Shown: positions 1 through 25,297 of the stretch, in pieces
Position numbering within the stretch: position 1 is the first letter of the stretch
Layout: the number at the start of each line of letters is the position of its first letter
From: an uncultured Clostridia bacterium
GTDB lineage: Bacteria > Bacillota > Clostridia > TANB77 > CAG-508
NCBI GenBank assembly: GCA_944390445.1
Contig: CALXQB010000003.1
Span: 1 to 34,694, forward strand
Reading direction: 5' to 3'
DNA length: 34,694 bases
Made by a program: the position numbers and the translations under genes
Notes under the pieces: model-generated
The model's database searches: none
What the model was told of the DNA's origin: nothing
The model's input: the letters and a program-made list of their open reading frames with translations, nothing else

Positions 1-1013
1 GTAAAGGAACATATCAAATAGCAACATTATTAACAAAAGAAGGTGTAGAACCTCCTGGACTACAAATGAAAATGACATGTGTAGTAAATAATATTACAAA
101 CACAACAGACAAGTGGAATCATAATACAGTTAGAAGAATTTTATCTAATCAAATATACATTGGAAATTGTGTGCAAAACAAAAATAAAAAGATTAGTTAT
201 AAAAGTAAAAAAATGATTTCATTACCAGAGGAGGAACACACAATAACTAAAAATCATCATAAAGCTATAATTCCAATTGAAAAATGGGAATTAGTACAGA
301 AAATGCTTGGAATACACAAAAACGCTAAAATTAGAGAAACGGATGTCATGTTCAAAGGTTTATTATATTGTTCTCATTGTAATAATAGGCTTTCTATTAG
401 AACAAAAGTGAATCATAATAAATCAGGAGATGTAACAAGAAGATATATATTGTGTGGTACTGCTGTTAAAAAAAATTCTAATAAGCCTTGTTATACAAGA
501 TATATAAAATATGATATTTTTGAAGAACAGGCTCTTTCTAAAATTGCAGAAACATTAGAAATGTATATAAATTCAAATGCTTTTAAAAACGAAGATGCTT
601 TGAAAAAAATACTTGAATCCCAAAGTAATAAAGGTAGTATTTTAAAAAAGATAGAAAAACTAAATAAAGATTTGGAAAAAGTTAATAAGAAAATAAGTAC
701 ATTATATAATGATAAACTAAATGGATTATTAGAGGAACAAGATTTTAAACTTTTTTCAGATGGTTTAGTTAATGAACGCCATAGAATTGAAAAAATCTTA
801 AAAGAAACTGAACTAGAATTAGAAAGTTTTGAAGAACATTCTACGAATAATAGAATAAAATCAGATATGCAGAATGTTATAAAAAAATTATCTAAAAGTA
901 AAGAGTTCAATAAAGAAACCATTAATCAATTAGTTAATAGGATTGAAATAGATAAAGATAATAATGCAGTAATATATTTTAATTTTTATGAATTAAATTG
1001 TATTGGAGGATAA
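1..1013 (+). CDS. Large serine recombinase, C-terminal part (cut by window edge)
   Basis: The reading frame is open from base 3, well before the first internal ATG at 66, so the gene begins upstream of the window and its catalytic N-terminus is not visible. What remains is the DNA-binding half of a large serine recombinase: a recombinase-domain segment (NHNTVRRILSNQIYIGN), a zinc-ribbon with CSHC followed by two later cysteines, a long charged coiled coil and a short C-terminal strand. The same order occurs in the next gene, which starts 7 bases after this stop, so the two are a tandem pair. Known members of the family (TndX/TnpX, phage integrases) move integrative elements. Role inferred: integration or excision of the element whose right edge lies at about 2600. 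Confidence 0.9.
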   Translation, partial: KGTYQIATLLTKEGVEPPGLQMKMTCVVNNITNTTDKWNHNTVRRILSNQIYIGNCVQNKNKKISYKSKKMISLPEEEHTITKNHHKAIIPIEKWELVQKMLGIHKNAKIRETDVMFKGLLYCSHCNNRLSIRTKVNHNKSGDVTRRYILCGTAVKKNSNKPCYTRYIKYDIFEEQALSKIAETLEMYINSNAFKNEDALKKILESQSNKGSILKKIEKLNKDLEKVNKKISTLYNDKLNGLLEEQDFKLFSDGLVNERHRIEKILKETELELESFEEHSTNNRIKSDMQNVIKKLSKSKEFNKETINQLVNRIEIDKDNNAVIYFNFYELNCIGG

Positions 1014-1020
1014 ATAGAAG

Positions 1021-2586
1021 ATGTCAAACAAGCAAGTAATTTATAGTGTAGGAATGTATTTAAGGCTAAGTAAAGATGATGGTGACGATATTGAAAGTGA
1101 AAGTATAACTAACCAAAGAAAATTAATTAAAGATTATATTAGTAAATATGAAAATATGAAACTATATGATGAATATGCTGATGATGGATATAGTGGAGCA
1201 AATTTTAATAGACCAGATTTTCAGAGATTACTTAAAGATATTGAAAGCAAAAAAATAAATATGGTTATAACTAAAAATTTGGCAAGATTAGGCAGAAACT
1301 ATATTGAAACAGGTAATTATATAGAGAAATATTTTCCGGATCATAGGGTTAGATATATTGCACTATTAGATAATATTGATAATTTTAAAGAAAGTGTTAG
1401 TAATGATTTTGTTCCTATTAAATCAGTATTTAATGAAAAACATTGTAGAGATACATCTATTGCAGTAAAGAAAACAAAAAGAAGAAAAATGGAGGAAGGA
1501 TTTTATGCTTGTAATACAGCACCTTTTGGTTATAAAAAGGATTCTGATACTCCTGGGAAATTGATAATAGATGGGGAAAGCAGTAAAACAGTAAAGAAAA
1601 TTTTCGATTTAAAATTAAAAGGATATACTACAAATGAAATTGTTAGATATTTAGATAAAAATAAATATGTTACACCAGTTGAATACATGAAAATTAGAGG
1701 ACAAGAATATATTGAAAATAAAAATTTATGGCGAAGAAGTACAGTAACTAGAATTTTATGTAATAAGGTTTATCTAGGGCATTGTGTAAGAGGAAAGACA
1801 CAAAACATTAGTTATAAATCTAAAGACAGAATTTTTGTTAAAAGAAATGACTTTATAATTACTAAAAATACTCATGAACCAATAATATCAGAGGAAGTGT
1901 TTGAAAAAGTACATAATACTAAAAAATATGGAGAAGTAAAAGAGTATAATGAAACAAACTATCTTTTAAAAGACTTAATTTATTGTAAAAATTGTGGCAA
2001 AAAACTTATTTTTAAGAAAGTAAGAAAAAGAGTAGTTATCTATTGTAGAAATTATGATGAAAACCCTAAATTATGCAACAATAATTGCAAATTAGATTAT
2101 TTTACAATTGAAAACAAAGTATTTGAATATATATCTAATATGTATAAAGAATATTTAAAAAATAATAGGGTAAAGGACAACCTTTACAAAAAATATACTG
2201 AAAATGTTATTAAAGTTTTAGAAGAAGATTTAAAACAATTAAATATATCTTTGGAACAGATAAATTTTAGAATAACATCTTTATATAATCAAAGATTGTC
2301 AGAAAAAATAAGCGAAGATGATTACAAAAATAGATATAATACTCTTATCGAACAAAGAAAAGGTTTATCAGATAATATTGCTGATAAGGAAAAAGAAATT
2401 AAAAATGAAAAGAATAAATTAAATACTTTAAATGAAAAGAAATTGATTCTAAAGAAAATTGAAAGACTTGATAAAAAGGATTTAAAAAATGTAAATTTTG
2501 AAGAATTGATTGAAAAAATTGAAGTATTAAAAAAAGATATACAAGTTAATTTTAACTTTGCAGAAGTAGTAAAACTTAAAGTTTAG
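1021..2586 (+). CDS. Large serine recombinase (TndX/TnpX-like)
   Basis: This 521-residue protein is a complete large serine recombinase. The N-terminal resolvase domain has YLRLSKDDGDD with the probable catalytic Ser17, a DGYSGANFNRPDFQRLL segment and the KNLARLGRNY motif with conserved arginines. It is followed by a recombinase domain (residues about 160-300, including ITKNTHEPIISEEVFEKV), a zinc ribbon (CKNCGKK, later cysteines near residues 345-360), a long coiled coil and a C-terminal beta tail. The start is the ATG 7 bases after the upstream recombinase stop, so both are probably co-expressed. It is the last gene before a truncated dacF-type gene, as expected for a recombinase lying next to its own attachment site. 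Which of the two enzymes cuts this site cannot be told. Confidence 0.93.
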   Translation: MSNKQVIYSVGMYLRLSKDDGDDIESESITNQRKLIKDYISKYENMKLYDEYADDGYSGANFNRPDFQRLLKDIESKKINMVITKNLARLGRNYIETGNYIEKYFPDHRVRYIALLDNIDNFKESVSNDFVPIKSVFNEKHCRDTSIAVKKTKRRKMEEGFYACNTAPFGYKKDSDTPGKLIIDGESSKTVKKIFDLKLKGYTTNEIVRYLDKNKYVTPVEYMKIRGQEYIENKNLWRRSTVTRILCNKVYLGHCVRGKTQNISYKSKDRIFVKRNDFIITKNTHEPIISEEVFEKVHNTKKYGEVKEYNETNYLLKDLIYCKNCGKKLIFKKVRKRVVIYCRNYDENPKLCNNNCKLDYFTIENKVFEYISNMYKEYLKNNRVKDNLYKKYTENVIKVLEEDLKQLNISLEQINFRITSLYNQRLSEKISEDDYKNRYNTLIEQRKGLSDNIADKEKEIKNEKNKLNTLNEKKLILKKIERLDKKDLKNVNFEELIEKIEVLKKDIQVNFNFAEVVKLKV

Positions 2587-3456: not shown

Positions 3457-3648
3457 GTGAGGCGGTTACTTAAGTCGATTTTCTGGGCATTACTCATTAC
3501 AATCATTTGCGTTGTATGGAAAGCCTTTATGGGCCTTGTAATTGACCTGGATGACATTTTTAGAGTGGCAAAACAGCCTTTCTTACTTTCCTTTATAGCC
3601 TATTTTATAGGCTATGGAGCTGGAAGAAAGGAGAAGAAAGTTAACTAG
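3457..3648 (+). CDS. Small two-helix membrane protein of unknown function
   Basis: A 63-residue protein with a basic N-terminus (MRRLLK), a first hydrophobic segment (residues about 7-27), a short polar loop (DLDD) and a second hydrophobic segment (about 42-56) ending in a basic tail (GRKEKKVN). It reads as a two-pass inner membrane protein. The start is GTG at 3457, preceded by GGAGG at 3444-3448. The nearby ATG at 3455 is out of frame and followed at once by TGA. It has its own promoter at the end of dacF. I do not recognise the family. Confidence 0.6.
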   Translation: MRRLLKSIFWALLITIICVVWKAFMGLVIDLDDIFRVAKQPFLLSFIAYFIGYGAGRKEKKVN

Positions 3649-3662
3649 CATACCCGACCGAC

Positions 3663-3685
3663 GGAGAATACAAATTGTATTCTCC
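3663..3685. terminator. Hairpin after the small membrane protein gene
   Basis: GGAGAATACAA and TTGTATTCTCC form an 11-base perfect inverted repeat around a single A. No long T-run follows, so it is a possible rather than certain terminator. Confidence 0.4.
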
Positions 3686-3770
3686 TAATCTATGTATGAG
3701 GGAAAATAAGAAGTATAGTGAGCTTTTATTGGATAAAATCTCATAAACTAGAAAAAATAATATAATAATA

Positions 3771-3799
3771 TTGACAGACGTAATACAATGTAGTACAAT
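3771..3799 (+). promoter_or_regulatory. Promoter and probable autoregulatory operator of the relBE-like pair
   Basis: TTGACA (3771-3776) and TACAAT (3794-3799) are spaced by 17 bases. Within it TAATACAAT (3781-3789) and TAGTACAAT (3791-3799) form a direct repeat with a 10-base period, and TGTAGTACA (3789-3797) is palindromic. This fits a ribbon-helix-helix antitoxin binding on one helix face over the -10 box. Confidence 0.7.
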
Positions 3800-3822
3800 A
3801 AAAGCAGAAAGGAGTGAATATT

Positions 3823-4041
3823 ATGACTATTTCAGTAAGATTAAGTGATAAAGACACAGAATTAATAAAAGCATATGCAGAAATGAATAACATTTCTTTA
3901 TCTGATTTAATAAGAAACGCAGTATTGGAGAAAATTGAAGATGAGTATGATTTGGAATGCTATAAAAAAGCAATAGAAGAATATAAGAAAAATCCTAAAA
4001 CTTATACAATGGAAGAAGTAAAAGAGGAGTTGGGAATGTAG
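3823..4041 (+). CDS. RelB-like (DUF6290-type) antitoxin
   Basis: A 72-residue protein with a ribbon-helix-helix N-terminus (MTISVRLSDKDTELIKAYAE, then ISLSDLIRNAVLEKIED) and a charged C-terminal tail that would wrap the toxin. I chose the ATG at 3823, which lies 8 bases after AGGAG (3810-3814). A GTG at 3814 is inside the ribosome site. Its stop codon overlaps the start of the RelE-type gene by one base, giving translational coupling. It should neutralise the toxin and repress the promoter just upstream. Confidence 0.88.
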   Translation: MTISVRLSDKDTELIKAYAEMNNISLSDLIRNAVLEKIEDEYDLECYKKAIEEYKKNPKTYTMEEVKEELGM

Positions 4042-4307
4042 TGAAATACAAAGTCATATTTACAGATAAAGCAAAAGGACAATTAAAAAAGTTAGATAAA
4101 CATATAGCTTCTCTTATCATTGGATGGCTAGAAAAGAATGTTCAGAATTGTGAAAATCCAAGAATACATGGTAAAGGTTTAGTGGAAAACAGATCAGGAC
4201 AATGGAGATATAGAATTGGAGATTATAGAGTAATATGTGAAATACAAGATAGAGAGGTAATAGTTCTTGTTTTAGAAGTAGGACATAGAAGAGAAATATA
4301 TCATTAA
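4041..4307 (+). CDS. relE: RelE-type mRNA interferase toxin
   Basis: An 88-residue RelE/ParE-superfamily protein: YKVIFTDKAKGQLKKLDKHI at the start, a central RIHGKGL segment, and the typical C-terminal strand block QWRYRIGDYRVICEIQ followed by VGHRREIYH. RelE enzymes cut mRNA in the ribosomal A site; the basic RYRIGDYR and HRREIY residues correspond to the usual active-site and RNA-contact positions. The start is GTG at 4041, whose G is the last base of the antitoxin TAG. The length is normal for the family. It acts in the cytoplasm as partner of the preceding antitoxin. ParE-like gyrase poisoning cannot be excluded, but the C-terminus fits RelE better. Confidence 0.9.
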   Translation: MKYKVIFTDKAKGQLKKLDKHIASLIIGWLEKNVQNCENPRIHGKGLVENRSGQWRYRIGDYRVICEIQDREVIVLVLEVGHRREIYH

Positions 4308-4361
4308 AAGGAATGCCTAAAATGACATTACTGATTTTTAGATGAGAAAACAGAAAAACAG

Positions 4362-4390
4362 TTGCTTTTTTTGGATAAATATGGTATGAT
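4362..4390 (+). promoter_or_regulatory. Promoter for rpmE
   Basis: TTGCTT (4362-4367), a 17-base spacer and TATGAT (4385-4390), about 50 bases before the rpmE start. Confidence 0.55.
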
Positions 4391-4438
4391 ATTATTCAGT
4401 AAAAATTTAGGAACAAAAAAAGAAGAGGTGAATGCGAA

Positions 4439-4639
4439 ATGAAACAAGGAATACATCCAGAATATAAAGAAACAACCATTACATGTGCTTGTGGAAACGT
4501 ACTAGAAGTAGGTTCTACAAAGGAAAACATAAAAGTAGATATTTGTTCTAAATGCCATCCATTTTGGACAGGTAATTTAAAACAAAATACAACAGGTGGT
4601 AGAGCAGATAGATTTAAGAAAAAATATGGAATTCAGTAA
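4439..4639 (+). CDS. rpmE: 50S ribosomal protein L31, zinc (type A) form
   Basis: A 66-residue L31 with [19 protein letters not shown] at the N-terminus and the four zinc ligands Cys16, Cys18, Cys36 and Cys39 (CAC and [10 protein letters not shown]). This is the C+ form made under zinc sufficiency. The ending [12 protein letters not shown] is family-typical. GAGGTG precedes the ATG. It bridges the ribosomal subunits. It is a single gene with its own promoter and is followed at once by a strong palindrome. Confidence 0.97.
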
Positions 4640-4650
4640 AAAAAAGACAG

Positions 4651-4724
4651 AGGGACAGAGCTTTTGTCTTAACAAATATGGAAGATGACTTTCTTGTTTT
4701 TGTTAAGAAAAAAGCTCTGTCCCT
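4651..4724. repeat. Long palindrome after rpmE, possibly doubling as its terminator
   Basis: AGGGACAGAGCTTTT (4651-4665) pairs perfectly with AAAAGCTCTGTCCCT (4710-4724), and an inner CTTAACAAA/TTTGTTAAG stem (about 4668-4676/4699-4707) continues it. It starts 12 bases after the rpmE stop. One arm of the same element, including the AAGACAAAAGCTCTGTCCCT string, occurs again at 20727-20746, so it is a dispersed repeat and not only a terminator. Confidence 0.75.
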
Positions 4725-4748
4725 TTCAATGTCATTTAGTTAAGAAAA

Positions 4749-4860
4749 TCAACCATATATACCTATATTTTATCCGCAAAACTCTCAAGGTTCAAGGAGT
4801 AATCCGTAAGCAGTAGGCGTGTTCGAGCTTTTGCTCCAAAATATAGGTATATATGGTTGA
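4749..4860. repeat. 112-bp element with perfect 23-bp inverted ends
   Basis: The ends at 4749-4771 and 4838-4860 are perfect reverse complements (23 bp; core CCATATATACCTATATTTT). The 66-base centre has no reading frame of note. The left end recurs with one change at 9137-9158. The size and terminal repeats are like a MITE or other palindromic intergenic element; no target duplication was identified. The rest of the 4640-5059 gap (4861-4984) shows no recognisable gene. Confidence 0.7.
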
Positions 4861-4984
4861 AATAAAAATAAAGAAAATATTTCACTTAAGTTAATGACAT
4901 TACCGTTGTTCTGTCTGGGATATTGGTCTCGTCAGTAAATCAATCAAAAAATAATAATTATTTTATATAAGAAGCTCTTATATC

Positions 4985-5014
4985 TTGCATTTTTTTTAAA
5001 GTTTGATATATAAT
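4985..5014 (+). promoter_or_regulatory. Promoter for the P-loop/Gls24-like gene and probably cmk-plsC
   Basis: TTGCAT (4985-4990), an 18-base spacer and a perfect TATAAT (5009-5014), about 45 bases before the start at 5060. Confidence 0.65.
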
Positions 5015-5059
5015 GAAAAAAAGAATTATGTTTATATAACATGAGAAAGGAATGAAAAG

Positions 5060-5911
5060 ATGATTGCATTCGACCATAAACCAAAAGCGTATGCATTTGT
5101 AGGACCTTCTGGTACAGGGAAAAGCTATAGAGCACAAATGGTAGCAAATGAAAGAAATATTAGTTATATTATTGATGATGGTCTTTTAATTAAAGATAAT
5201 GAAGTAATTGCAGGAACTTCTGCTAAAAAGGCGGAAACCAAAATAGAAACAGTAAAAAATGCACTTTTTACTAAACCAGAACAACAAGCAGAAATAAAAA
5301 AAGTAATTCGAAAATACAAGCCAGAAAGTATTTTAATATTGGGAACCTCTGATGGTATGGTAGAAAAGATTGCAGAAAATTTAGGAATTGCACCTATTGT
5401 AGAAACAATTTATATTCAACAAGTTGCTACAGAAGAAGAAATGAAAACAGCAAGAAGAATTCGAACAACAGAAGGTAAACATGTCATTCCTGTTCCTACT
5501 TTTGAAATCAAAAAAGATTTCTCTGGCTATTTATTGGACCCACTACAGATTTTTAAATCAAAAGGGAAAGATGTAAAACCATATATTGCTGAGAAATCAA
5601 TTATAAGACCAACATTTAGTTATTTAGGAAATTTTGTGATTTCAGATACTGTATTTAGACAAATTATAGAATACCTAGCAACAAAATCAGAAGCAATTTA
5701 TCGTGTAAATAAGGTAAGAACAGAAAAATCAGAAAATGGTATGTATATTTATATTGAAACAACAATTGAATATGGCTATAATGTTATTGAAGCATTAAAT
5801 TTATTTAAACAAAAATGTAAAAAAGAAATTGAAAACTTAACAGCAATGAATGTGGGAAGCATTGATATTGTCGCTAAAAACATACATATGCCAGAAGGAA
5901 AAATATCATAG
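5060..5911 (+). CDS. P-loop ATPase fused to a Gls24/Asp23-like domain
   Basis: A 283-residue protein. The first half is a P-loop domain with Walker A GPSGTGKS at residues 15-22, an IIDDGLLIKD stretch, and an ILILGTSDGMVEKIAENLG segment. The C-terminal ~100 residues (from about 185, RPTFSYLGNFVISDTVFRQI, ending MNVGSIDIVAKNI) resemble the Asp23/Gls24 envelope-stress family with its alternating beta strands. I know no assigned activity for this fusion. It likely binds a nucleotide and couples it to an Asp23-type scaffold. It starts at ATG 5060 after GAAAGGA, and cmk follows after 17 bases, so they are probably one operon. No signal peptide or membrane segment is visible. Confidence 0.75.
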   Translation: MIAFDHKPKAYAFVGPSGTGKSYRAQMVANERNISYIIDDGLLIKDNEVIAGTSAKKAETKIETVKNALFTKPEQQAEIKKVIRKYKPESILILGTSDGMVEKIAENLGIAPIVETIYIQQVATEEEMKTARRIRTTEGKHVIPVPTFEIKKDFSGYLLDPLQIFKSKGKDVKPYIAEKSIIRPTFSYLGNFVISDTVFRQIIEYLATKSEAIYRVNKVRTEKSENGMYIYIETTIEYGYNVIEALNLFKQKCKKEIENLTAMNVGSIDIVAKNIHMPEGKIS

Positions 5912-5928
5912 AAGAGGAGAAGATAAAA

Positions 5929-6597
5929 ATGGTGATAGCAATTGATGGACCAGCAGGTTCTGGAAAAGGAACAGTAACAGAATTATTAGCAAAAGAATTA
6001 AATTTTACCAAGATAGATACTGGGGCAATGTATAGAGCAATTACTTGGGAAGTAATACAAAAAAAGGTTTCATTAGAAGATATAGAAAAAATTAAAGAAA
6101 TATTATGCAATAGTAAAATTGAGTTTCAAAAAGAGAGAGTCTTCTTAAACCAAAGGGAAATTACAAATGAAATTCGAACAAAAGAAGTAAGTAATTTAGT
6201 TTCACAAGTATCTCATATTGTAGAAGTGAGAAATGCTATGGTAAAGTTACAAAGGGAAATGGGTGAAAACAGAGATATTATTATGGAAGGACGAGATATT
6301 GGAACAAATGTATTTCCCAATGCAGAAGTAAAAATATATTTAGATGCTTCACCAGAAGAACGAGCAAGAAGGAGATATGAACAAAACTTAGAAAAAGGAA
6401 TTTCAACAACATATGAAGAAGTCTTAGAAAATGTAAAATTCCGTGATCATAATGATAAAACAAGTAATGTGGGACCATTGAGAATTGCAGAAGATGCTGT
6501 AATTGTAGATTCTACAGACCTAACTATTGAAGAAGTAGTAGAAACAATAAAAAAAATTGTAGAAAAGAAAGAGAAGAAGGAAAATGCAAAATGTTGA
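5929..6597 (+). CDS. cmk: Cytidylate kinase
   Basis: A 222-residue (d)CMP kinase that phosphorylates CMP and dCMP to the diphosphates. The P-loop GPAGSGKG is at residues 7-14. KIDTGAMYRAIT, a central NMP-binding insert, GRDIGTNVFPNAEVKIYLDA and the RDHNDKTSNVGPLRIAEDA segment are all diagnostic. The ATG follows GAGGAG. Its last 14 bases overlap the start of plsC, which is the common cmk-plsC arrangement in Firmicutes. The highly charged KKIVEKKEKKEN tail is slightly long but not abnormal. Confidence 0.97.
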   Translation: MVIAIDGPAGSGKGTVTELLAKELNFTKIDTGAMYRAITWEVIQKKVSLEDIEKIKEILCNSKIEFQKERVFLNQREITNEIRTKEVSNLVSQVSHIVEVRNAMVKLQREMGENRDIIMEGRDIGTNVFPNAEVKIYLDASPEERARRRYEQNLEKGISTTYEEVLENVKFRDHNDKTSNVGPLRIAEDAVIVDSTDLTIEEVVETIKKIVEKKEKKENAKC

Positions 6598-23656: not shown

Positions 23657-23665
23657 CCTATTGGC
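23645..23665. terminator. Shared terminator of convergent sortase and reverse transcriptase genes
   Basis: GCCAATAG (23645-23652) and CTATTGGC (23658-23665) form an 8-bp stem around ATAAC. On the plus strand GTATTTCCTTTTT follows. It contains both stop codons. Confidence 0.7.
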
Positions 23666-24868
23666 GTATTTCCTTTTTATCTTTATAATATTCACTTACA
23701 AGAGGACGATAATTACATTGTTTTAAATAAGAATACTTTATATTTCCATAATTCTTTTTATTATGTTTTCCTGTTACAACATACCTTAAACATTCTTGCA
23801 TATATTTATCGATTTCACGTAAGCCATTTGTGGTATTAATAACAGGGAAGAACCATCTAGACCATGTTAAATCCTTACCGTTTTCCATAAAATAAAATTT
23901 CTTATTAAACTTACGATTAATTGTTTTTAAAGCTCTTTCAGGAGAAGCGTTTTTGGCTATCATCCATCTTCTAATTTTTTTGGAAAATCTTTTGATTTTC
24001 TGCTTAATTTTCTTTTTAGTGACATCAGATATATCAACTACTCCATTATCATAAGAAAAACCTAAAAAAGTCCATTTGTTATTAGGAGCTATAATTTCTC
24101 GTTTATCTTGATTGAGATTTAAATTTAATTTTAAAATTTGATTTTCTAATGTAACAACATAATCATAGAGTTTTTCACTCTCACAAAATAAAATAATATC
24201 ATCAGCGTATCTAGCATATAAGATGTTTTTTCTGCATAAAAATGGTCAATATCATTAAAAAAAACATTGGATAAAAAAGCAGAAATAGGTACTCCAGCCA
24301 TAATTCCTTTTTCTTCTTCTATGATTTGACCTTGAAAAAATACTTTCTTATCAATCAAAAGTTGTTTCATAAATTGAAATAATGAGGGATCATCTGAAAT
24401 AAAATTTTCTAATTTAGATAATAATAAAGGTATTGGAATACTATTAAAATAATTTTCAATATCTACCTTATAGCAAGCTAAATATTTAATTTATCTTGTA
24501 GTGGTAATGTTAAAAATAGCTTGCTTAACTCCATAGTTTTGACGAAAAGAATAACAGTTAGGAGCAAATTTATTGTCATACTTATATAGTAAAAAAGATA
24601 ATAATTTTAATATCATTGTCTCATGTTCATTATATTGATAAACTACTCTCTTTTTTGATTTATCTATTTTATTAATAAGATATTTAGTAGGAGGTGAAAA
24701 GTGGTAGGTACCATCTATAATCTCATTAGCAATAGGAAGATATTTTTTGTGTTCAATATAATTGCGAAAGTATTTTTCTTCACCAGGTGTTAAAAGAGAA
24801 TGGTCTATTTTATATTGAAAAAAATTGTTCCATGATTTTTCATTTCTTAATTCATTAAGAATAGACAT
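23658..24868 (-). pseudogene. Reverse transcriptase, disrupted; candidate UG/DRT-type defence RT
   Basis: About 403 codons from ATG 24868 (GGAGG 5-6 bases upstream; the ATG at 24880 contains that site) to TAG 23658. Motifs in order: KRVVYQYNEHETMILKLL and NCYSFRQNYGVKQAIFNI (RT1-2), YKVDIENYFNSIP (motif A), GIMAGVPISAFLSNVFFNDID (motif B, lacking the usual QG), ILYARYADDIILF (motif C, YADD), NLNQDKREI and WTFLGFSYDNG (D-E), then a basic C-terminal part (about 130 residues) ending YRPLVSEYYK. No maturase, HNH or integrase domain is seen. It is broken by TAA at 24491-24493 in frame and by a one-base loss in the run at 24226-24231. A structured RNA lies directly upstream. The class is inferred, not proven. 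Confidence 0.8.
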
Positions 24869-24884
24869 AATAACCTCCATAAAA

Positions 24885-25019
24885 GAAAAAGCAAAAAAGA
24901 ACGATTTTGAAATCGATGTAATCGATACAAGACTGAACTTATAGAGACCACTTGCACAATCATAAAAACTATAAGCTTCGCCCTACCACAAGTGCCATAG
25001 GCATCTTTTTTGCTTTTGC
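24885..25019 (-). ncRNA. Candidate structured ncRNA upstream of the reverse transcriptase
   Basis: About 135 bases between a promoter and the RT start. The ends are inverted repeats: 24885-24900 and 25004-25019 match at 15 of 16 positions (14 contiguous), so they close the RNA. Inside are stems 24938-24944/24969-24975 (7 bp) and 24949-24954/24989-24994 (6 bp). The two cross and could form a pseudoknot. Hairpins 24902-24915 (CGATTTTGAAATCG), 24912-24926 (ATCGAT-GTA-ATCGAT) and 24993-25003 (TGCC-TAT-GGCA on the RNA strand) are also present, some mutually exclusive. No reading frame is seen. Retron msr-msd and DRT2/DRT9-type RNAs have the same position and terminal closure. This assignment is inference. 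Confidence 0.6.
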
Positions 25020-25021
25020 TA

Positions 25022-25050
25022 ATTATACACTAGATTTTATAAATATACAA
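25022..25050 (-). promoter_or_regulatory. Promoter for the ncRNA and reverse transcriptase
   Basis: On the minus strand TTGTAT (25050-25045), a 17-base spacer and a perfect TATAAT (25027-25022). The start would fall at the first base of the closing inverted repeat. Confidence 0.6.
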
Positions 25051-25059
25051 GTAAAATGA

Positions 25060-25086
25060 AGAAAAAAGACTTGCGAGTTGCAAGTC
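25060..25086 (-). terminator. Terminator of the DUF1540 gene
   Basis: On the minus strand GACTTGC-AACTC-GCAAGTC (25086-25068) followed by TTTTTTCT. It separates the DUF1540 gene from the RT promoter. Confidence 0.85.
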
Positions 25087-25123
25087 CCCATAAAGATAGT
25101 TCTAACTTATTTAGAAATTAAGA

Positions 25124-25297
25124 CTATTTTGTTGGTTTACATTCATAACTAGCACACATAGACTCATCTTGTGGTTTTCCTGTATTACAGTTAGCACAAG
25201 GTTCAACGATAATTTGCTCTAATTCACACTCTTGTCTTTGACTATTATTCCAAGTACAGCTTTGTACCGTACAATTTATTTTCTGATTTTTTTCCAT
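25124..25297 (-). CDS. DUF1540 cysteine-rich small protein
   Basis: A 57-residue protein, MEKNQKINCTVQSCTWNNS at the start, then CELEQIIVEPCANC and ESMCASYEC: the CxVxxCxxN plus Cys pattern of DUF1540. It has seven cysteines and no signal peptide, and is probably a metal-binding or spore-associated domain; the function is unknown. The ATG at 25297 follows a strong AGGAGG (minus strand). A terminator lies 38 bases after the stop. Confidence 0.85.
   Translation of the reverse strand: MEKNQKINCTVQSCTWNNSQRQECELEQIIVEPCANCNTGKPQDESMCASYECKPTK

What the first reader, a model, noticed from the sequence alone, without database searches (positions are those of the whole stretch)
23658..25050. Reverse transcriptase with an upstream RNA closed by terminal inverted repeats
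Seen: a YADD RT of about 403 codons, an own promoter whose start falls at a 16-base inverted repeat, and a 135-base non-coding stretch ending just before the RT ribosome site, with further internal stems that can cross into a pseudoknot. Known: retrons and DRT2/DRT9-type defence RTs have an ncRNA in exactly this place, copied by the RT. Inference: a defence RT-ncRNA pair. The motif B GVPISAFLSN lacks the common QG, and the retron Y-region VTG is not where expected, so it may be a poorly described class. In this copy the RT carries a stop and a frameshift.
Basis: partly seen in the sequence, partly recalled or inferred. Interest (0 to 1): 0.78.

Follow-up and report, generated by a model that had tools for sequence, protein, structure and literature searches.

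The report
Broken UG26 reverse transcriptase with RT-5 RNA
This is a damaged copy of a widespread bacterial gene pair, a reverse transcriptase and a structured RNA just upstream of it; close relatives use such RNAs as templates for making repetitive DNA against viruses in a telomerase-like way, but this particular pair has not been tested as far as I could find.

Summary
The upstream RNA matches Rfam RT-5 (RF03026, 58.7 bits, threshold 45.7). The RT is PADLOC's UG26 (E 1e-145), closer to UG27 and UG17 (DRT10) than to retrons; group II and retron models stay far below cut-off. This copy has an in-frame stop and a frameshift; an intact orthologue sits at the same site (98% protein identity).

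RT-5 accompanies nearly all UG26 RTs: 105 of 117 loci. Strong covariation supports a closing helix, hairpins and a pseudoknot; Rfam's model lacks the closing helix and shows no pseudoknot. Where no accessory gene precedes it, the RNA usually has its own -10 box. In one genus it lies 1-9 kb from the RT, same strand, so it can act in trans. A small accessory (PADLOC RTasCOG2852; PD-(D/E)XK-like fold) precedes it in 49 of 87 loci, not here.

Most likely mechanism: a Class 2 defence RT copying a short segment between the last hairpin and the closing helix into repeat DNA, as DRT10 does. Direct repeats there exceed shuffles but do not clearly covary, so this is inferred. RT and RNA are both catalogued; the three-part architecture, trans arrangement and near-fixed distribution in one family look new. 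No UG26 experiment was found in the held literature.

The parts
23658..24868 (-). UG26 reverse transcriptase gene, broken (about 403 codons if read through)
   Evidence: PADLOC RT_UG26 E 1.4e-145 over the whole length; 98% identical intact orthologue L002
24491..24493 (-). in-frame TAA stop in the RT
24226..24231 (-). one-base frameshift in a homopolymer run just before YADD
   Evidence: alignment to L002
24887..25018 (-). RT-5 ncRNA, whole extent by covariance model R1
   Evidence: 93.8 bits, E 1.5e-19; Rfam RF03026 core 24898-24997, 58.7 bits
25005..25018 (-). P1 closing helix, 5' strand
   Evidence: inverted repeat; P1 covaries
24887..24900 (-). P1 closing helix, 3' strand, followed by a T-tract
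24993..25003 (-). P2 hairpin
   Evidence: sequence; kept with changed sequence in relatives
24987..24994 (-). pseudoknot, 5' strand
24949..24956 (-). pseudoknot, 3' strand, in the loop of P5
24969..24976 (-). P4c helix, 5' arm
24937..24944 (-). P4c helix, 3' arm
24912..24926 (-). P6 hairpin, upstream of the proposed template
   Evidence: covaries in all 7 model pairs; a G-C to A-T double change against L002
24902..24911 (-). candidate template A-B (TTCAAAATCG, read 5'-3' on the minus strand)
   Evidence: position analogous to the DRT10 template; repeat tests; inferred, not shown
24899..24901 (-). candidate realignment site A' (TTC), partly inside P1
   Evidence: inferred
25022..25027 (-). -10 box TATAAT (TTGTAT -35 at 25045-25050, spacer 17)
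   Evidence: sequence; recurs at this place in relatives

Best explanation
The locus is a decayed copy of a two- or three-part RNP of the Class 2 defence-RT kind: UG26 RT plus RT-5 RNA, often with a small PD-(D/E)XK-like accessory. The 130-160 nt RNA starts at the closing helix P1 and folds with a pseudoknot. The RT binds it and copies a short segment between hairpin P6 (5' template boundary) and the 3' strand of P1, slipping back on a short direct repeat (A-B-A') to make tandem-repeat DNA, probably primed from a tyrosine in the conserved C-terminal tail. The product or the RNP acts during phage infection. Shown by comparative evidence: the RT-RNA pair, the RNA structure, the accessory's position, the inactivation here. 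Inferred: template position, repeat synthesis, protein priming, defence role.
For: RT nearest to UG26, then UG27, UG17 (=DRT10) and UG4. RT-5 found in 86 of 117 loci in held flanks and in all 19 informative wider upstream stretches of loci first lacking it. RNA pairs: 35 of 38 changed on both sides, 273 two-sided cells against 92.6 shuffled, and a fall when slid; pseudoknot and P1 found on a structure-blind alignment. -10 box at a fixed place. Accessory upstream in 49 of 87 loci, PADLOC RTasCOG2852 1e-58. Template: DRT10's template lies just 3' of a stem-loop near the RNA's 3' end (PMC12632851); direct repeats at that place in RT-5 exceed shuffles (p 4e-4; z 3.65). Tyr in 101 of 108 distinct C-terminal tails; Eco1DRT10 probably primes from a C-terminal Tyr.
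Against: A and A' do not covary clearly: cross-pairing p about 0.2; only a post-hoc G-G association, p 0.003, overall p 0.09. A second repeat peak lies over P6. A' often falls inside P1. The candidate template core TTYAA is conserved, unlike DRT10's variable template. No SLATT partner was seen. No clear defence genes among the window neighbours tested. Near-fixed, syntenic presence in g479 is unusual for defence. No UG26 experiment was found in the held papers.
Confidence: 0.55

Rival explanations
1. The RNA is the RT's cofactor and template, but the template is another unpaired segment (for example the variable 6-10 nt bulge between P4c and P5), copied once or as a homopolymer rather than by A-B-A' slippage.
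For: The bulge is poorly conserved and sits beside the pseudoknot, against a roughly 9-bp helix that could act as boundary. In the window it reads TTTTTAT; DRT9 copies a poly-U tract.
Against: Direct repeats are not enriched there (p 0.38), and most bulges lack a U-run. The characterised DRT10 template lies at the 3' side.
Confidence: 0.2
2. A fixed, non-defence RT-RNA pair with a housekeeping role in some gut Clostridia (for example DNA repair or end processing), only sporadically carried elsewhere.
For: 77 of 115 genomes of one family, 49 of 62 good ones; g479 RTs form one clade of 22 with support 1.0 and conserved neighbours.
Against: Patchy elsewhere: 22 of 200 in f29, 3 of 195 in the window's family, 1 of 398 across the phylum; f29 and f17 are interleaved in the RT tree, so it moves horizontally. 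PMC12632851 states that all experimentally characterised UG enzymes are implicated in phage defence.
Confidence: 0.15
3. RT-5 is only a cis regulatory leader of the RT mRNA, not a template or cofactor.
For: It usually lies 10-100 nt upstream of the RT start.
Against: In a g61 clade it lies 1-9 kb away on the same strand and is still strongly conserved, often with its own -10 box; it is followed by a T-tract.
Confidence: 0.05
4. The stop and frameshift in the window are assembly errors and the system is intact.
For: One change is a one-base homopolymer difference. Of the 11 substitutions against L002, 9 are silent, 1 is a missense and 1 the stop (my count on the alignment), so the gene was under selection until recently.
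Against: Two independent lesions; the stop is a base substitution.
Confidence: 0.2

Closest known systems
RT-5 RNA (Rfam RF03026)
   Same: Significant match in the window (58.7 bits) and upstream of most UG26 RTs
   Different: The Rfam model covers 104 positions; it lacks the closing helix P1 and shows no pseudoknot, both supported here
UG26 RT (PADLOC PDLC03764, listed under DRT)
   Same: Full-length match, E 1.4e-145
   Different: Window copy broken; the PADLOC profile is of the protein alone, the RNA is not part of it
DRT10 (UG17 RT, ncRNA, SLATT), PMC12632851
   Same: UG17 is the third-ranked UG profile for this RT; 137-nt upstream RNA of similar plan; candidate template just 3' of a stem-loop; Tyr in the C-terminal tail
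   Different: No SLATT gene seen; accessory is PD-(D/E)XK-like; A-B-A' not established; conserved TTYAA core; RNA can be kilobases away
DRT9 (UG28)
   Same: RT fold aligns over 372 residues, Z 23.8; RT plus ncRNA
   Different: No conserved poly-U template across RT-5 RNAs
RTasCOG2852 (PADLOC PDLC03793)
   Same: Accessories in L004, L006 and L008 match at 1e-54 to 1e-72
   Different: Most divergent versions tested (L007, L009, f29, g479) escape that model or match weakly; absent at the window locus

Membership tests
UG26 RT | Best and full-length match to the UG26 profile | tested here: met
   1.4e-145 over residues 1-401; next family 7.5e-36
RT-5 RNA (RF03026) | Score above the gathering threshold | tested here: met
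   58.7 against 45.7 bits
Class 2 DRT | RT groups with the UG2/3/17/28 type | tested here: inconclusive
   Nearest UG profiles are UG27, UG17 and UG4, then Drt3a and Drt9; no full UG tree could be built
Class 2 DRT | Conserved ncRNA encoded in cis | tested here: met
Class 2 DRT | RNA-templated repeat cDNA | not testable with these tools
   needs RIP-seq and cDNA sequencing
Class 2 DRT | Phage defence | not testable with these tools
   needs plaque assays
DRT10 | RT is UG17 | tested here: not met
   UG17 1.3e-32 against UG26 1.4e-145
DRT10 | SLATT partner | tested here: inconclusive
   no SLATT hit among the window genes tested; neighbours of relatives were clustered but not scanned for SLATT one by one
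DRT10 | A-B-A' pattern in the template loop | tested here: inconclusive
   above shuffles, not above cross-pairs
Retron | Retron RT and msr-msd RNA | tested here: not met
   retron St85 model 51 against a cut-off of 235; no retron RNA reached Rfam thresholds
Group II intron RT | Maturase profile and intron RNA | tested here: not met
   TIGR04416 116.8 against 300; GIIM 13.6 against 23; no intron RNA. The fold resembles GsI-IIC RT (Z 30)
DGR | Template and variable repeats with a DGR RT | not tested
   no dedicated search; the RT belongs to UG26

The most novel reading that the evidence does not exclude
A telomerase-like RT with a separately encoded, trans-acting template RNA that has become a near-core, vertically inherited gene pair in gut Clostridia and makes repeat DNA for a purpose other than phage defence.
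Probability: 0.12. Interest if true: 0.9.

Novelty: new variant of a known kind. Interest (0 to 1): 0.55.

Why it matters
It joins three catalogue entries without known function (RT-5 RNA, UG26 RT, RTasCOG2852) into one system with a defined architecture. It gives explicit, testable template predictions close to the bacterial RTs proposed as relatives of telomerase, and offers hosts in which such an RT is fixed rather than sporadic.

Tried and rejected
The P4c/P5 bulge as an A-B-A' template: no repeat enrichment. Relatives in viral contigs: none; phages and plasmids: only distant RTs below 60% identity. DRT10 (UG17) loci from the same class as a positive control for the repeat test: none found in 196 genomes, so the power of that test is unmeasured. 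A UG26 paper: only cold-seep viruses and unrelated uses of the term. The papers I recall for the UG classes and the RT RNA motifs are not held. Foldseek on the accessory gave no strong hit (best E 0.016, EcoT38I). RNAalifold cannot show the pseudoknot together with P4-P6 in one nested structure; a script to place the pseudoknot in the fitted alignment found no consistent columns, so the pseudoknot rests. Region L169 was fetched on the wrong side and is not counted.

Full report
Observation. The minus strand of 23658-24868 encodes an RT whose frame is interrupted by a TAA (24491-24493) and a one-base frameshift at 24226-24231. An intact orthologue lies at the same site of a related genome (L002, CALXRW010000028.1, 98% protein identity). 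The 11 substitutions between the two genes are 9 silent, 1 missense and 1 the stop (my count), so inactivation is recent or an assembly error.

What the parts are. The RT, read through for the search with X at the stop and at the frame join, matches PADLOC RT_UG26 at 1.4e-145, next UG27 at 7.5e-36 and UG17 at 1.3e-32. NCBIfam group II and retron models stay far below cut-off. The upstream RNA is Rfam RT-5. The genome has one copy.

Relatives. Eight searches with the UG26 profile and one protein scan gave 117 distinct loci (count). A covariance model made here finds RT-5 in 86 of them within the held flanks. In 19 further loci, whose earlier flanks were too short, it lies about 3-9 kb upstream on the RT strand at 118-139 bits. 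Of the remaining 12, four were not tested further or end at contig edges (L030, L055, L058, L120) and eight are divergent (L024, L093-L097, L138, L141); L141 has an RT-5-like RNA by eye. The association is therefore close to universal, and the uncoupled cases argue for action in trans.

RNA structure. A structure-blind alignment recovers the closing helix and the pseudoknot, 16 of 20 pairs with two-sided changes. On a fitted alignment of 26 other matches, 35 of 38 pairs have two-sided changes, and all measures exceed 500 of 500 shuffles and fall when slid. The alignment was fitted to the model, so the pair percentage leans towards it; the covariation counts are the firmer part. The order is P1, P2, pseudoknot strand, P4 (its P4c part about 9 bp), bulge, P5 with the pseudoknot loop, P6, then a short segment and P1 again.

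Expression. Where no accessory gene precedes the RNA, a -10 box stands just before P1 in 26 of 38 loci, against 8 of 49 with the accessory and a background of 10%. So the RNA either has its own promoter or sits in the accessory's transcript.

Accessory. A 150-185 aa protein ends usually about 10 nt upstream of the RNA in 49 of 87 RNA-bearing loci. It has no Pfam family. PADLOC calls the typical form RTasCOG2852. A five-sequence AlphaFold model gives helix-strand-strand-strand-helix-strand-helix with low confidence in the N-terminal 60 residues and weak similarity to restriction endonucleases. The acidic residue of the third strand is not kept in many versions, so catalysis is doubtful (inference). 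The window lineage lacks it.

Mechanism. Class 2 DRTs studied so far use cis ncRNAs as templates for repeat cDNA (PMC13174585). DRT10 uses an A-B-A' template just 3' of a stem-loop and primes from a C-terminal Ser or Tyr (PMC12632851). In RT-5 the matching place lies between P6 and P1, where TTY recurs 7-12 nt apart (window TTCAAAATCG|TTC). Repeats there exceed shuffles (p 4e-4) but not cross-pairings between RNAs (p about 0.2), because the TTY consensus is family-wide. A sliding scan gives z 3.65 there and a similar peak over P6. A post-hoc test of the preceding base gives p 0.003 for G-G and 0.09 overall. I count this as suggestive. The bulge between P4c and P5 shows no such signal. The RT tail keeps LV[NH]EYY; 101 of 108 distinct tails have a Tyr there. 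The AlphaFold model of the intact RT (pLDDT 90.6) aligns with GsI-IIC RT (Z 30.5), G2L4 (25.9), DRT9 (23.8) and DRT2 (22.2).

Distribution. The pair is in 77 of 115 genomes of one family (f44) and forms a syntenic clade of 22 in g479. Elsewhere it is patchy and interleaved between families in the RT tree. So it is a mobile system that became fixed at least once. In the window it sits between a sortase-like gene and small housekeeping genes, not an evident defence island.

Verdict. Confidence in pair and structure is above 0.95; in ncRNA-templated repetitive cDNA of some kind about 0.7; in A-B-A' at the named place about 0.45.

Noticed in passing
L063, L110, L113, L059, L151-L168, L170: In one clade of genus g61 the RT-5 RNA lies 1-9 kb upstream of the RT, same strand, with other genes between.
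   Followed up: yes
L063 (RT-oriented 3558-5942), L059, L111: A 794-aa HD-domain protein, apparently membrane-bound at its N-terminus, ends directly at the RT start codon in some g61 genomes; a possible alternative partner.
   Followed up: partly
window 24899-24926 against L002: Between two near-identical systems most RNA differences fall in P6 and the candidate template, including a compensatory G-C to A-T change.
   Followed up: partly
g61 RT-5 RNAs, between P6 and P1: AATGATTTC resembles the Eco3DRT10 template CAATGATTC at the analogous place; may be chance.
   Followed up: no
L138: UG26-like RT inside a 1281-residue open frame, perhaps a fusion.
   Followed up: no
window 25126-25296 (approximate), minus strand: Small Cys-rich ORF resembling DUF1540 proteins by eye, with a terminator-like hairpin at 25065-25089 just before the RNA promoter.
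   Followed up: no
window 66-2586: Two adjacent large ORFs that look like serine recombinases with zinc ribbons, suggesting the end of a mobile element.
   Followed up: no
window 4041-4307: Small ORF that looks like a RelE/YoeB-type toxin.
   Followed up: no
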